A stretch of DNA of 47,876 bases from Acidimicrobiales bacterium (GTDB lineage: Bacteria; Actinomycetota; Acidimicrobiia; Acidimicrobiales; UBA8190): NCBI GenBank assembly GCA_030040015.1, contig JASHUM010000014.1, positions 1 through 47,876 of the forward strand. Reading direction: 5' to 3'. The position numbers were made by a program, and so were the translations under genes. Positions within the stretch are counted from its first letter, which is position 1. Each line of letters opens with the position of its first letter. The notes below the pieces were generated by a model. It was not told the DNA's origin and did not search any database. It saw only the letters and a list, made by a program, of their open reading frames with translations. Below are positions 1-17,073 of the stretch, piece by piece.

Positions 1-238
1 GACCCTCCAGCTCCCAGAAGACGAGCCGAGTGAAAGGAGGCTCGGTTCGCAGAGCGACTGCCGTCGATCCGGCGTACTCCGCGCCGGTGTCCGGCCGTGT
101 GTTGCTGACCTTTCCGGCGAAGAGGTCGAGGTAGATAGTGGCGCGAGCCTTCGTCGATGCCCGCGTAAAGCCAGCGAGGTACTTCCGCAGCACCTCGAGC
201 TTCGCTTCAGTCCACCATCCGCCCCACTCGTCGCTCAC
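1..238 (-). CDS. tcmP: Three-Cys-motif partner protein TcmP (partial, C-terminus outside the window)
   Basis: This is the first 79 codons of a gene that runs off the left edge. The translation begins MSDEWGGWWTEAKLEVL and contains YLDLFAGKVS, a later GST motif and LVFWELEG. The W-x(5)-KL opening followed by a (Y)xDxFAG motif is what I know from the TcmP family, which has a Rossmann, methyltransferase-like look. The GTG start overlaps the TGA stop of the DUF5131 gene in a GTGA (4 nt), so the two are probably translationally coupled. TcmP and three-Cys-motif (Gp37/Gp68) proteins are known neighbours, which supports both calls. Its biochemical role is not known to me. The identification rests on the N-terminal third only. 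Confidence 0.75.
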   Translation of the reverse strand, partial: MSDEWGGWWTEAKLEVLRKYLAGFTRASTKARATIYLDLFAGKVSNTRPDTGAEYAGSTAVALRTEPPFTRLVFWELEG

Positions 239-990
239 GACGCCGCCTTGGCGGCCACCTCCGGCATCTCGTCCCACGTTCGGCCGTCGAGGGTGCGACC
301 GCCAGCCTTGGGAGTGCGACCTCCCCATTGCTTGAAGAAGAACGCTATGCCTTCGTCAGCGCAGCGGTCCCGGAGATCGGCCACCCATTCCCGTTCGAGC
401 GGCCGGGCACCGGGCCCGCTCTCGCCGCCCGCGATCAACCAATGGATGTCGGAGAGGTCGAGTCCAGGCACGGGACCCAGCATGGGCTCGACCGACAAGA
501 ACCGGACTGCCGCCGGAACCGCACGGAGGTGGTTGGCCCGAAAGGCGTAGCGGTCCGACTCGATGCTCACACCCATCCATACGTTGGGCGGCCAAGGCAG
601 CTCGCTGGCGATCTTGGTCAGACGGCGGGAGCGCTTGGTGAGGACCTGGTAGGTGTGTCGGGGTGTAGAAGCCATCACCTCGAAGACCCTGAGGATGAAC
701 TCCGTCGGGACCTCGTCGTGGAAGAGGTCGGACATCGAGTTCACAAAGACGGTCCGCGGATTCGCCCAGCGCCTGGGCAGCTCCAGGGCGTCGGGGTGGA
801 GCGTGACCCCGAACCCTGGGCCCGACGTCCGTGCGTCTCCGTCGCGCTGGTACTTTGCTACCCCCATGGCCTTGAGACGCTTGGCGAGGGTCATGGCGTA
901 GCAGTGGTCGCAGCCCGGCGAGGTGCGATCACAGCCCGTCGTCGGGTTCCAGGTCGCCTCGGTCCACTCGATGCTGCTGCGGTCCCCCAT
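235..990 (-). CDS. DUF5131 family protein (phage Gp37/Gp68-like, three-Cys motif)
   Basis: A 251-residue protein whose N-terminus, MGDRSSIEWTEATWNPTTGC, followed by a Cys-rich stretch ending in CDHCYA, is diagnostic of the phage Gp37/Gp68 (DUF5131) family. Three cysteines spaced C-x6-C-x2-C sit near residues 19-29 and recall a radical-SAM cluster loop. Conserved-looking blocks VFVNSMSDLFHDEVP, VLTKR, NVWMGVSIE, FLSVEPMLGP and WLIAGGESGPGARP follow. I chose the ATG at 990 because the family starts there and GGTGGGG lies just upstream; an in-frame ATG 57 nt further up adds an unrelated tail. It overlaps tcmP downstream. The family is common on phages and integrated elements. The substrate is unknown, and the radical-SAM link is an inference from the cysteine pattern. 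Confidence 0.9.
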   Translation of the reverse strand: MGDRSSIEWTEATWNPTTGCDRTSPGCDHCYAMTLAKRLKAMGVAKYQRDGDARTSGPGFGVTLHPDALELPRRWANPRTVFVNSMSDLFHDEVPTEFILRVFEVMASTPRHTYQVLTKRSRRLTKIASELPWPPNVWMGVSIESDRYAFRANHLRAVPAAVRFLSVEPMLGPVPGLDLSDIHWLIAGGESGPGARPLEREWVADLRDRCADEGIAFFFKQWGGRTPKAGGRTLDGRTWDEMPEVAAKAAS

Positions 991-1258
991 CACCCCACCA
1001 GCCCCATCTGCAACATCGTCGCACACCGTACCGACACGGTGCGACACGCCGGGACCCTAGGTCAGGCCAGCGGCTCAAAGAACGACTGGAGCAATCGTGA
1101 GCGGCCCTCGCCATCCGGATTCGGAGCAACAACCGGAGCAACAACTCCCTGCGAATCTCCGGGAGCGGCGGGTAAGACCGGTAGAGCGTGGGAACAAAGG
1201 TGCAGGTCACGGCGTACGTTGGTGAATACCGACGAGCCGTGAAAAGGATCCGATCACC
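991..1258. other. Non-coding junction segment of the putative integrated element
   Basis: Between the DUF5131 start and the tRNA remnant I see no convincing gene. Open frames here have no start signal or family resemblance. The stretch looks less GC-rich than the chromosome to its right. It carries a short tandem repeat (1122-1145) and directly abuts the broken tRNA, so it would be the terminal, attachment-site side of the element. Confidence 0.5.
1122..1145. repeat. Two tandem copies of CGGAGCAACAAC
   Basis: A perfect 12-bp direct repeat, copy 1 at 1122-1133 and copy 2 at 1134-1145, about 115-135 bp from the broken tRNA. Short direct repeats at this distance from an attachment core could be integrase arm sites, but no integrase is visible, so this is only a suggestion. 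Confidence 0.6.
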
Positions 1259-1297
1259 TTTCGAGACCGTCCGATTCGTCCGCTCTCGCACTCCTCC
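1259..1297 (-). pseudogene. 5' half of tRNA-Ser(CGA), broken at the anticodon loop
   Basis: On the minus strand the first 18 bases match the intact tRNA-Ser(GGA) at 3771-3855 exactly (acceptor GGAGGAG through the D arm). The D-loop segment CGAATCGG is also shared. The anticodon arm reads ACGGT then the loop CTCGAAA, giving anticodon CGA. A tRNA would continue ACCGT, but the sequence changes to GGTGATCG, and no extra arm, T arm or CTCCTCC acceptor strand follows. The break lies at the 3' end of the anticodon loop, a classic crossover site for tyrosine integrases. The intact half lies on the tadA side, and the element side carries DUF5131/TcmP. Confidence 0.8.
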
Positions 1298-1339
1298 GGA
1301 CCCCGAGAGGCTATCCGCTGACCTGCGTGGCCCCGGGCC

Positions 1340-1846
1340 TCAATCAGCCGGCTGGCTCGAACGGCGAGCGGCGAAGAACCGGGTGAGGAGGTCGGCTGAC
1401 TCCTCGGCCAGGACGCCCGCAGTGATGGGGAGCTCGTGGTTGAGTCGTGGATCGGCGCACAGCTGGTAGAGCGAGCCGCAGGCGCCGGCCTTGGGGTCGG
1501 CGGCGCCGAAGACGAGCCGGCCCACCCGGGAGGCGACGAGCGCCCCGGCGCACATCGGGCAGGGCTCGAGCGTCACCACCACCGTTGTGTCCTCGAGGCG
1601 CCAGGTCCCGGCCCGGGCCGCGGCGTCCCGAAGGGCCAGGATCTCGGCGTGGGCGGTGGGGTCGCCCCTCAGCTCGCGCTCGTTGTGCCGTGCCGCCACG
1701 ACGGCCCCACCCGACACGACCACGGCGCCCACAGGCACGTCGTCGTGCGCTGCGGCACGATCCGCTTCCGCCAGGGCCAGGCGCATCAGGCCCTCGTCGT
1801 CGGCGGGCAACGCCGGGGTCCGGCCCTCGGCGGCGGTGCTGACCAT
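1340..1846 (-). CDS. tadA: tRNA-specific adenosine deaminase TadA
   Basis: A 168-residue cytidine/deoxycytidylate-deaminase-fold protein of the expected TadA size. It converts adenosine 34 of tRNA-Arg(ACG) to inosine in the cytoplasm. The zinc site is complete: HAE at residues 66-68 (His ligand and catalytic Glu) and PCPMC at 95-99 with both Cys ligands. The segment ADPKAGACGSLYQL and the tail NHELPITAGVLAEES are typical of TadA rather than of free cytosine deaminases. It stands alone, facing away from the unknown gene at 1883, with only about 36 bp between the two starts. Its 3' end is 42 bp from the tRNA-Ser remnant, so this gene marks the chromosomal side of the junction. Confidence 0.93.
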   Translation of the reverse strand: MVSTAAEGRTPALPADDEGLMRLALAEADRAAAHDDVPVGAVVVSGGAVVAARHNERELRGDPTAHAEILALRDAAARAGTWRLEDTTVVVTLEPCPMCAGALVASRVGRLVFGAADPKAGACGSLYQLCADPRLNHELPITAGVLAEESADLLTRFFAARRSSQPAD

Positions 1847-3728: not shown

Positions 3729-3770
3729 ACTGACCCTCGGTGTCATTGAGACGGCGGCGGTCTTCGTGAG

Positions 3771-3855
3771 CGGAGGAGGTGGGATTTGAACCCACGGACC
3801 CGTGAAGGTCACACGATTTCCAATCGTGCCGATTCGGCCGCTCTCGCACTCCTCC
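3771..3855 (-). tRNA. tRNA-Ser(GGA)
   Basis: An intact class II tRNA of 85 nt on the minus strand. Acceptor strands GGAGGAG and CTCCTCC pair, with discriminator G. The anticodon arm is CACGA-TTGGAAA-TCGTG with anticodon GGA. A long extra arm (GACC...GGTC) and the T arm GTGGG-TTCAAAT-CCCAC follow. CCA is not encoded. It reads UCC/UCU codons. It is the intact model against which the broken tRNA-Ser(CGA) at 1259-1297 can be aligned. Confidence 0.96.
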
Positions 3856-3927: not shown

Positions 3928-4063
3928 GGCCCGGTGCTCCGTGCGGCGGCCGGGTCCTGCGCAACGGTCGCCCGTGAACCGAGTCAGGGCCGGAAGGCAG
4001 CAGCTCTCAGCGGGTCAGGCCGTGTGCCGTAGCCAACCTGGCCGTCGCACCGACCACCGGGCC
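3928..4063 (+). ncRNA. ffs: Signal recognition particle RNA (small bacterial type)
   Basis: The conserved domain IV hairpin is present at about 3983-4004: GTCAGG, the GGAA tetraloop at 3992-3995 and GCAGCAGC on the 3' side, where Ffh binds. The outer arms pair over a long distance: GGCCCGGTG at 3928-3936 with CACCGGGCC at 4055-4063, and CGGCCGGGT with ACCTGGCCG further in. The result is one long rod as expected. The ends are set by this pairing and may be off by a few bases. It lies directly upstream of dnaX in the same direction, a common actinobacterial order. Confidence 0.88.
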
Positions 4064-15090: not shown

Positions 15091-15955
15091 AGCCCTCGAG
15101 ACCGCCGCCGACACCCAGCTGCTCGAGCAGCTGTCCTCCGTGTTCGCCGCCGAGCAGGTCGAGCCGCCCGAGCAGGGACTGCGGGCCCTCTACGTCGCCG
15201 TGGCGTCGATGCCCACGCGCCGTCGCGTCAGCGAGTCGATTTCTTCCGCCTTCGACCGACTGGTGCGCCGTCCCTGGGTGGTCGTGGCCGTGACCGGTGG
15301 CCTCGTCGTGGCCGGCGCCGGAAGTGCGGCAGCGGCCGGGGTGTCGCTGCCCGGGCCGGTTCGCAGTTTCGCCGAGGCCATCGGGCTCCCGGTGACGCCC
15401 AGCCCGCTTTCCCAGGTCCAAGGGGACGTGTCGACGCTGGAGCACGACCTGTCCTCGGGGTCGCCCAATTCCCAGGCGCTCTCTCGGGCGACGCAGGCAC
15501 TGAGTGCCGAGCTCGCCCGCCTCGACCACGGCGATCGACTCGCCGCCGGCGACGAGCCCGGCCAGGCCCTCGACCAGTCGTGCCGCGACTTGGCCGAGAA
15601 CCCGCAGAGCTGGAGCTCCCAGCCGGCATCGGTGCACCAGGCGTGCGCCGGCCGTGTCGCCACTTCGGGAAGCCCGGCGAGCCCGAGCTCGGGCTCTCCG
15701 GAACCAGGCCAGCCCGAGTCTCCCGGCGCTCACGGCGGCCCAGGGTCGGGAGGCCAGGGCACGCACCCTGGTTCGGGGGGCTCGGCTCCGGGGCACTCGG
15801 GATCGGGCCAGGGCACGCCGCCTTCGGGCGGAGGCTCCGGCGGCACGACCTCGGGGCCCGGTGGGACCGGTGGGACCGGCGGCTCGGGTGGCGGCGACCC
15901 CAGGCCGGGTTCGGGGCCCCGGGCTGGCTCGGCTTCGCCGGGCGGGCACCGCTGA
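15083..15955 (+). CDS. Single-pass membrane protein, putative anti-sigma factor
   Basis: A 290-residue protein starting with ATG inside the sigma gene's last codons. Residues 1-63 are cytoplasmic and helical (QLLEQLSSVFAAEQVEPPEQ, RRRVSESISSAFDRL). One membrane span is at about 64-86. An outside region of about 110 residues (SRATQALSAELARLDHG, a Cys pair in DQSCRDLAENPQSW...VHQACAGRV) follows. The C-terminal 95 residues are a disordered Gly/Ser/Pro/Thr repeat. I see no HxxxCxxC zinc motif, so it is not a ZAS-type anti-sigma. The anti-sigma role is inferred from gene overlap, topology and size only. The low-complexity tail may reach into or through the cell wall. Confidence 0.75.
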   Translation: MPEALETAADTQLLEQLSSVFAAEQVEPPEQGLRALYVAVASMPTRRRVSESISSAFDRLVRRPWVVVAVTGGLVVAGAGSAAAAGVSLPGPVRSFAEAIGLPVTPSPLSQVQGDVSTLEHDLSSGSPNSQALSRATQALSAELARLDHGDRLAAGDEPGQALDQSCRDLAENPQSWSSQPASVHQACAGRVATSGSPASPSSGSPEPGQPESPGAHGGPGSGGQGTHPGSGGSAPGHSGSGQGTPPSGGGSGGTTSGPGGTGGTGGSGGGDPRPGSGPRAGSASPGGHR

Positions 15956-15972
15956 GCCCACCCGACAACGGC

Positions 15973-17073
15973 TCAGCCCGGAGTGATGTTCACCACCTCT
16001 CCGGGGTTGGCCGTCGCGGCCAGGAGTGACCCTCCGGTGAGGACGAGCCGCCGGAACACCCCGGGGAGGTGGACGGGCTTGCCCTCCTCGGTGCCGGTCT
16101 CGGGGTTCAGCGCGGTGAGCGCGGCCGTCTGCCCATCACCCGCCCACACCCGGCCGTCGTAGACGGCGACGGCGACCGGGTCACCACCGACGTGGTAGGT
16201 GCGCTCCCGCAAGGTCGTGGGGTCGACGCGGTCGACCGTGCCCGACTCAGCGTCAGCCACCCAGACGGCGCCCGGCGACGTGGTCACCCCGATGGGTTCT
16301 TGTCCCACGTCGACGACGCGATAGGAGAGCCTGGTCCCGTCGGGATGGGGTGACACCCGGGTGAGGGTGTCGGTCGTTCCCGTCACCCACACCGCTCCAT
16401 CGCCGACGGCCACCCGCACGGCACCGTCGGGGAGCACGGCCGACGCTTCCACCACGTCGGTGGCGGGATCGATCAGGCTCACCGATCCGGCCGTCAGGCT
16501 GGCCACCCAGACACCGTCCTCGCCGGTGGCCACAGACACCGGCTCATCGCCCACCGCGATCGGTGATCCGTCTGCCTCGCCGGTGCGCGTGTCGACCCTG
16601 ACCACCTGGTTGCCGACGGCGTCGGCCACCCACAACTCGCCGTAGCCGGCGGCGATCGCCACGGGCCGCTTGGCCACGTTTCGGGGCGGGCCCTGCCATG
16701 CACCCGAGGACACATCGAAGCGGCGGACGGTGCCGGTGTCGTCGTCGACGACCCAACCCGACCCGGCCGTCACCACGACGTCGGCGGCTTCGGATCGTAC
16801 CGACGTCCGGAAGGTCGCGTCGGGCGACGGCCCGCTCCGACCGGTCACGACCACCACGACGGCGGCGACGGCTGCCGCCACGACGAGGCCCGCAGCGAGG
16901 AGGCGGACCCCCAGTCGAGGACCTGCGCTCTGCGTCCTTCGGCTCTCCTCGGCGAGCTGTCTGGCGTCGGCACGCCGTTGGCGCCCACTCGGGGCACGCC
17001 GGCCAGGCCGGCCGGACGGCGAAACGCCCGATCGCGAGCGAGAAGGTGAGGAGCGCCGGGTGTCGGGCGTCAC
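15973..17073 (-). CDS. Membrane-tethered beta-propeller protein
   Basis: A 366-residue protein with a 50-residue Arg/Ser-rich cytoplasmic N-terminus and one membrane span (about 55-77). At least six repeats follow, of the type V-(A/S)-V-(A/G)-x-G-x-(V/L)-W-V-(A/T)-(D/S) and V-x-R-(V/I)-D-P. Examples are GYGELWVADAVGNQVVRVD, GEDGVWVASLTAGSVSLID and SPGAVWVADAESGTVDRVD. This is the YVTN/Vgb-like propeller pattern, exposed outside the cell. No catalytic site is visible. It starts with GTG 14 nt after the LivHM-type permease stop and is the last gene of that operon, so it may bind ligand or scaffold the transporter at the surface. Confidence 0.8.
   Translation of the reverse strand: MTPDTRRSSPSRSRSGVSPSGRPGRRAPSGRQRRADARQLAEESRRTQSAGPRLGVRLLAAGLVVAAAVAAVVVVVTGRSGPSPDATFRTSVRSEAADVVVTAGSGWVVDDDTGTVRRFDVSSGAWQGPPRNVAKRPVAIAAGYGELWVADAVGNQVVRVDTRTGEADGSPIAVGDEPVSVATGEDGVWVASLTAGSVSLIDPATDVVEASAVLPDGAVRVAVGDGAVWVTGTTDTLTRVSPHPDGTRLSYRVVDVGQEPIGVTTSPGAVWVADAESGTVDRVDPTTLRERTYHVGGDPVAVAVYDGRVWAGDGQTAALTALNPETGTEEGKPVHLPGVFRRLVLTGGSLLAATANPGEVVNITPG

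What the first reader, a model, noticed from the sequence alone, without database searches (positions are those of the whole stretch)
1259..1297. tRNA-Ser(CGA) cut exactly at the anticodon loop: integration junction
The 5' 39 nt align base for base with the intact tRNA-Ser(GGA) in the same window through the anticodon loop, then identity stops. Housekeeping tadA lies on the tRNA side and phage-type DUF5131/TcmP genes on the other. This is the expected footprint of a tyrosine integrase acting in the anticodon loop. Unusually, the tRNA is left broken instead of being restored by the element. Either the only tRNA-Ser(CGA) was lost (UCG could be read by the UGA isoacceptor) or a rearranged end carries the 3' half.
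Basis: partly seen in the sequence, partly recalled or inferred. Interest (0 to 1): 0.75.

Follow-up and report, generated by a model that had tools for sequence, protein, structure and literature searches.

The report
Mobile-element junction in a serine-tRNA gene
A mobile genetic element has inserted into the anticodon loop of a serine-tRNA gene; relatives carrying the same kind of junction show that such elements usually bring their own front half and promoter and rebuild the tRNA at the other end, so the gene is probably relocated rather than lost.

Summary
Window 1297-1259 (-) is the first 39 nt of tRNA-Ser(CGA), ending in the anticodon loop (CTCGAAA). It is 39/39 identical to the intact gene that lies just downstream of tadA in two congeners, but only 32/39 identical to tRNA-Ser(GGA). 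After the loop the DNA is foreign: DUF5131 and a partial TcmP. The window is one whole contig of a 77%-complete draft genome, so the other end of the element lies beyond the contig edge.

The claim that the tRNA is "left broken" is probably wrong. Three of 397 genomes searched in the order carry the same 5'-half fragment cut in the same loop (G084, G261 and G011). All three also have an intact tRNA-Ser(CGA) whose 5' flank holds a tyrosine integrase. G084 shows both ends on one contig, about 14.4 kb apart. In these elements attP carries the 5' half and the upstream DNA, and the host's 3' half completes the tRNA. A 12-bp tandem (presumed integrase arm-type sites) lies 113-115 nt from the loop in the window and in all three. 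This is the rare but known "5' tDNA fragment" class (159 of 3,919 Islander islands).

Restoration in this genome itself is inferred. Non-restoring integration (tRNA-dependent lysogeny) is not excluded.

The parts
1259..1297 (-). Displaced 5' fragment of host tRNA-Ser(CGA): acceptor 5' strand, D arm, anticodon 5' strand and loop
   Evidence: 39/39 identical to the intact tRNA-Ser(CGA) downstream of tadA in G001 and G002; unique in the bin
1259..1265 (-). Anticodon loop CTCGAAA, the presumed strand-exchange (overlap) region; identity to the intact gene ends here
   Evidence: Same end point, to within one base, in G084, G261 and G011
1122..1145 (-). Presumed integrase arm-type sites: perfect 12-bp tandem GTTGTTGCTCCG x2, 113 nt from the loop; a third partial copy (CGATTGCTCCA) near 1086-1096
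   Evidence: Equal-period tandems at 115, 114 and 113 nt in G084, G261 and G011; such a tandem in 1 of 5000 resampled arms and 1 of 220 other 211-nt tiles of the contig. The motif GTTGCTCC also occurs four times at period 12 just upstream of an integrase in an unrelated acidobacterial contig (L316)
235..1047 (-). DUF5131 protein (three-Cys, radical-SAM-like), element gene
   Evidence: Pfam PF07505 E=3e-100; relatives in 150 IMG/VR viral stretches, up to 72% identical
2..328 (-). 5' part of the TcmP gene (three-Cys-motif partner), cut by the contig end; start codon uncertain, TcmP-like from about base 214 down
   Evidence: TIGR04474 E=4e-13, 50 bits against a cut-off of 53, partial protein
1340..1846 (-). 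tadA, host flank
   Evidence: Pfam deaminase hits; tadA followed by tRNA-Ser(CGA) is conserved in the family and order
3770..3855 (-).
   Evidence: ARAGORN, Rfam

Best explanation
This is one end (the displaced-fragment end) of an integrated phage-like element whose tyrosine integrase recombines in the anticodon loop of tRNA-Ser(CGA). The element's attP carries the 5' half of that tRNA gene with its own upstream DNA. After integration the host's 5' half stays behind next to tadA as a fragment, while the element's 5' half joins the host's 3' half at the far end, beside the integrase, and makes an intact tRNA-Ser(CGA) transcribed from element DNA. Shown: the 5' fragment, the foreign DNA, the arm-type repeats, and the full two-ended arrangement in a relative. 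Inferred for this genome: the integrase, the far end and the restored tRNA, which lie beyond the contig edge.
For: (1) attB is intact next to tadA in congeners G001 and G002 and in G031, a family relative of G084. (2) Same 5' fragment, cut in the same loop, in G011 (same family), G084 and G261. (3) Complete case in G084, contig C2: tadA, 5' fragment (L092 2280-2319), element, integrase (15438-16676, -), intact tRNA-Ser(CGA) (16757-16843); the 40-nt 5' half is identical in both copies. (4) G261 and G011 have the fragment and the intact integrase-flanked copy on separate contigs; G150, G342 and G005 (the last in the window's own family) show the integrase directly 5' of, and divergent from, intact tRNA-Ser(CGA). 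(5) Arm tandems: period 12, 113-115 nt from the loop in window, G011, G261 and G084; in G084 the TTTGGGAT motif is on both arms, and in G011 TAGGACA is on both. (6) Element-side promoter-like TTGGGA-N18-CATAAT 7 nt before the tRNA in G261 and G342.
Against: No integrase of this kind, no 3' half and no intact tRNA-Ser(CGA) was found in this genome's bin, though the bin is incomplete. The contig end was not found repeated in another contig, so the element could not be extended. The window's element shares the geometry but not the arm sequence of the solved cases. The promoter-like match is absent in G084. In G342 no 5' fragment follows tadA, so fragments can decay or the element there is rearranged.
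Confidence: 0.75

Rival explanations
1. Non-restoring integration as in tRNA-dependent lysogeny: the element shares only a short core with the loop, breaks the tRNA, and supplies a complete serine tRNA gene elsewhere in the element (or the loss is tolerated because tRNA-Ser(UGA) reads UCG).
For: This mode is documented in actinobacteriophages with 8-17 bp cores (PMC10865867). Only one end is visible here, so the extent of the attP core is unknown. The bin has tRNA-Ser(UGA). In G005 a tRNA-Ser(UGA) lies just past the integrase.
Against: All three genomes with the same 5' fragment also have an integrase-flanked intact copy. [quoted passage not shown] no precedent of a 5'-fragment, non-restoring element was found at this gene.
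Confidence: 0.15
2. Decayed remnant: a former element or rearrangement deleted the 3' half, leaving a tRNA pseudogene beside leftover phage genes.
For: No integrase or 3' half in the bin; a decayed or absent fragment is seen in G342.
Against: The cut is exactly at the loop, the fragment is still 39/39 intact, and the arm tandem is perfect and at the expected distance, all signs of an unaltered junction.
Confidence: 0.06
3. Assembly chimera joining the host contig to unrelated phage DNA at the tRNA.
For: Draft metagenome bin; contig ends 1.26 kb beyond the junction.
Against: Arm repeats sit at the same distance as in three separate assemblies; the fragment is unique in the bin, so there is no repeat there to cause a misjoin.
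Confidence: 0.03
4. A group I intron or other intervening sequence in the anticodon loop, with the 3' exon further along.
For: Anticodon loops are a usual place for tRNA introns (general knowledge).
Against: No group I intron match in Rfam at E<=1; no 3' half in the 1258 nt available; the DNA holds protein genes and arm repeats; solved relatives are integrase elements.
Confidence: 0.01

Closest known systems
Islander-class genomic islands with a 5' tDNA fragment (159 of 3,919 islands; PMC4383910)
   Same: Tyrosine-integrase element in a tRNA gene, displaced 5' fragment, anticodon-loop crossover, intact tRNA at the other end (shown in G084)
   Different: In the window only the fragment end is visible. 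At this gene 5' fragments (4 genomes, two of them carrying close relatives of one element) are at least as frequent as 3' fragments (2 genomes), against about 4% overall in Islander
Archaeal pTN3-type elements (attB in the 5' half of a tRNA gene; the restored tRNA is expressed from the integrase promoter; PMC8371274)
   Same: Polarity: the element supplies the 5' half and promoter
   Different: pTN3 integrase genes are split on integration; here attP lies outside the integrase gene, about 80 bp from its start
tRNA-dependent lysogeny of actinobacteriophages (Fionnbharth, LeBron; PMC10865867)
   Same: Host tRNA gene interrupted in an actinobacterial setting
   Different: There attP and attB share only 8-17 bp and the phage carries a whole tRNA; the solved relatives here share 40 nt and rebuild the tRNA
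Ordinary 3'-restoring tRNA integrases (e.g. G105 at the same tRNA-Ser(CGA); G031, G137, G081 at tRNA-Ser(UGA))
   Same: Nearest sister integrases, 41-43% identical, serine-tRNA targets
   Different: Integrase lies 3' of the tRNA in the same direction; the 5'-restoring ones form one branch among these (support 91/91)

Membership tests
5'-restoring (5' tDNA fragment) integrated element | Displaced 5' fragment of a tRNA gene ending at an integrase crossover site | tested here: met
   39/39 fragment ending in CTCGAAA
5'-restoring (5' tDNA fragment) integrated element | Foreign DNA with attachment-site arms next to the fragment | tested here: met
   DUF5131/TcmP; 12-bp tandem 113 nt from the loop
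5'-restoring (5' tDNA fragment) integrated element | Empty site intact in close relatives | tested here: met
   G001 and G002, same genus
5'-restoring (5' tDNA fragment) integrated element | Tyrosine integrase gene in the element | tested here: inconclusive
   In the bin only XerC- and XerD-type genes and a short fragment on C120; the element is cut by the contig end. Present in G084, G261 and G011
5'-restoring (5' tDNA fragment) integrated element | Intact tRNA rebuilt at the other end | tested here: inconclusive
   Other end not in the 77%-complete bin; shown in G084 on one contig
tRNA-dependent lysogeny | Short attP/attB core, tRNA not rebuilt | not testable with these tools
   Far junction not available
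tRNA-dependent lysogeny | Element encodes a complete tRNA of the same isotype | tested here: inconclusive
   None in the 1.26 kb seen; the rest of the element is unseen
Group I intron in a tRNA gene | Intron core and 3' exon downstream | tested here: not met
   No Rfam match, no 3' half in 1258 nt

The most novel reading that the evidence does not exclude
In this order, integrases of the serine-tRNA clade have reversed attP polarity at the near-palindromic anticodon arm of tRNA-Ser(CGA): the element takes over the tRNA's promoter, and the stranded host tRNA promoter now reads into the element. In the window, DUF5131 and TcmP lie in that direction about 210 bp on, so a constitutive host tRNA promoter would drive a phage cargo pair in the integrated state.
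Probability: 0.2. Interest if true: 0.5.

Novelty: new member of a known kind. Interest (0 to 1): 0.33.

Why it matters
It corrects a tempting reading (a tRNA gene destroyed) to a more ordinary one (gene split and probably rebuilt with a foreign front half and promoter). It also points to a locus, tRNA-Ser(CGA) downstream of tadA, where the rare 5'-restoring polarity recurs, in integrases of one clade and in G011's separate 302-aa integrase. That makes the question of how integrases switch attachment-site polarity, and how a tRNA changes its promoter, open to comparison.

Tried and rejected
Extending the contig: the first 27 nt of the window occur nowhere else in the bin. Finding the 3' half or integrase in the bin: none. 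Finding attP in viral contigs by the 5'-half pattern: none. Locating the right flank through the G001 downstream gene: only weak, unrelated hits. Nearest phage hits for window 1-1400 match only the DUF5131 region in the rows listed; junction DNA 1060-1310 and window 1-300 match no phage. Among 13 pattern hits in the order, nine were intact tRNAs with G-U stem pairs or a coding sequence and were set aside. G342 was considered as a second complete element and rejected: ordinary genes follow tadA and no fragment is left. The arm-motif scans were uninformative apart from L316, the only one of those loci in which an integrase relative was detected. Williams 2002 is not held; I know it only through the papers that cite it and from memory.

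Full report
What is there. Window 1297-1259 (-) reads GGAGGAGTGCGAGAGCGGACGAATCGGACGGTCTCGAAA. This is the 5' half of a tRNA-Ser(CGA) through its anticodon loop. It matches the window's own tRNA-Ser(GGA) without gaps but at 32 of 39 positions. The firm evidence is the congeners: in G001 and G002 an intact tRNA-Ser(CGA) lies directly downstream of tadA and is 39/39 identical over this stretch. From the next base on, the window departs (GGTGATCGG instead of ACCGTTGTGG). No tRNA is predicted there. A 20-nt piece of the fragment occurs once in the bin even with three mismatches allowed, and no unassigned 3' half was found in the bin.

Limits of the data. The window is the whole contig C49 of a 2.5 Mb, 151-contig draft genome judged 77% complete. 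Base 1 is a contig end, 1.26 kb from the junction. The tRNA genes typed in the bin include no Asp, Glu, Phe or Asn, so the absence of tRNA-Ser(CGA) says little.

The same cut elsewhere. A pattern for this 5' half followed by a base that does not fit the usual tRNA was run over 397 genomes of the order. Apart from nine intact tRNAs or coding matches, it found the window, G011 (same family), G084 and G261. All four break in the loop, at CTCGAAA or one base later.

What the other cases show. In G084 both ends lie on one contig: tadA, 5' fragment (L092 2280-2319), a Fic gene, a 3090-aa open frame, a 412-aa tyrosine integrase (15438-16676, -), and then an intact tRNA-Ser(CGA) at 16757-16843. The 40-nt 5' half is identical in the two copies, while the DNA in front of each differs. 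G261 and G011 have the two ends on separate contigs: the fragment beside host DNA, and an intact copy with an integrase on its 5' side. The integrase of G011 (302 aa, with an N-terminal SAM-like domain) is of another kind. G150, G342 and, in the window's own family, G005 show an integrase about 80 bp from, and divergent to, the 5' end of intact tRNA-Ser(CGA). G031, in the same family as G084, shows the empty site. So the element supplies the 5' half, and the host's 5' half is what is left over.

Attachment-site arms. On the element side of the window fragment there is a perfect 12-bp tandem, GTTGTTGCTCCG twice, beginning 113 nt after the loop. G084, G261 and G011 have tandems of the same period (AATTTTGGGATG, AATTTTGGGATG, AAAACTAGGACA) at 115, 114 and 113 nt, counted from the end of CTCGAAA; the script's offsets start two bases later for these three. 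In resampled sequence such a tandem appears in 1 of 5000 arms, and in 1 of 220 other tiles of the contig. In G084 the motif TTTGGGAT recurs on the integrase side, also twice at spacing 12. That is the expected layout of arm-type integrase sites (from general knowledge of tyrosine integrases; binding was not tested). As an aside, GTTGCTCC occurs four times at period 12 just upstream of an integrase in an acidobacterial contig, again divergent from a tRNA gene (L316).

Promoter. In G261 and G342 the element carries a TTGGGA-N18-CATAAT match ending 7 nt before the tRNA; G150 has the same CATAAT. G084 does not meet the consensus. A consensus match is not proof of a promoter.

Integrase relationships. 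In a tree of 28 integrases, the five that sit 5' of tRNA-Ser(CGA) form one branch (support 91/91, below the usual 95 mark for the first figure). Their nearest relatives sit 3' of serine tRNA genes in the usual polarity, one of them (G105) at tRNA-Ser(CGA) itself. G105 also holds a displaced 3' fragment, as expected. This suggests, but does not prove, that polarity was reversed within a serine-tRNA clade. The integrase of the window's element is unknown.

Place among known things. Islander counted 159 islands with a 5' fragment among 3,919. A review notes the archaeal pTN3 elements as using the 5' half, with rare bacterial parallels. The finding is therefore a further member of a known, uncommon kind. 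At this gene the counts are 4 genomes with 5' fragments against 2 with 3' fragments; numbers are small, two of the four are close relatives, and exact patterns miss divergent copies. The main rival for this genome is non-restoring integration with a phage-borne tRNA, which only the far junction can settle.

Noticed in passing
window 1048-1300: The stranded host tRNA promoter region would read toward DUF5131/TcmP, which lie on the same strand about 210 bp past the junction; one weak terminator-like hit at 1148-1135 overlaps the tandem.
   Followed up: partly
L132 / L158 (G005): Prophage-like region with an integrase between tRNA-Ser(CGA), divergent, and a tRNA-Ser(UGA) just past its end, followed by open frames that look like phage recombination genes (by eye only); whether the UGA tRNA is phage-borne was not settled.
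   Followed up: partly
L316 (Acidobacteria 28-9): Integrase divergent from tRNA-Leu(CAG) with four GTTGCTCC repeats at period 12 between them, possibly another 5'-restoring element.
   Followed up: partly
G261:C260 17119-18423: A second integrase directly 3' of tRNA-Ser(UGA), in the usual polarity, about 12 kb from the 5'-side one.
   Followed up: no
L350, L352 (G208): Two displaced 3' halves of tRNA-Ser(CGA) 105 bp apart, perhaps successive integrations.
   Followed up: no
window 3948-4046: Small SRP RNA gene upstream of a dnaX-like open frame, E=8.5e-18.
   Followed up: no
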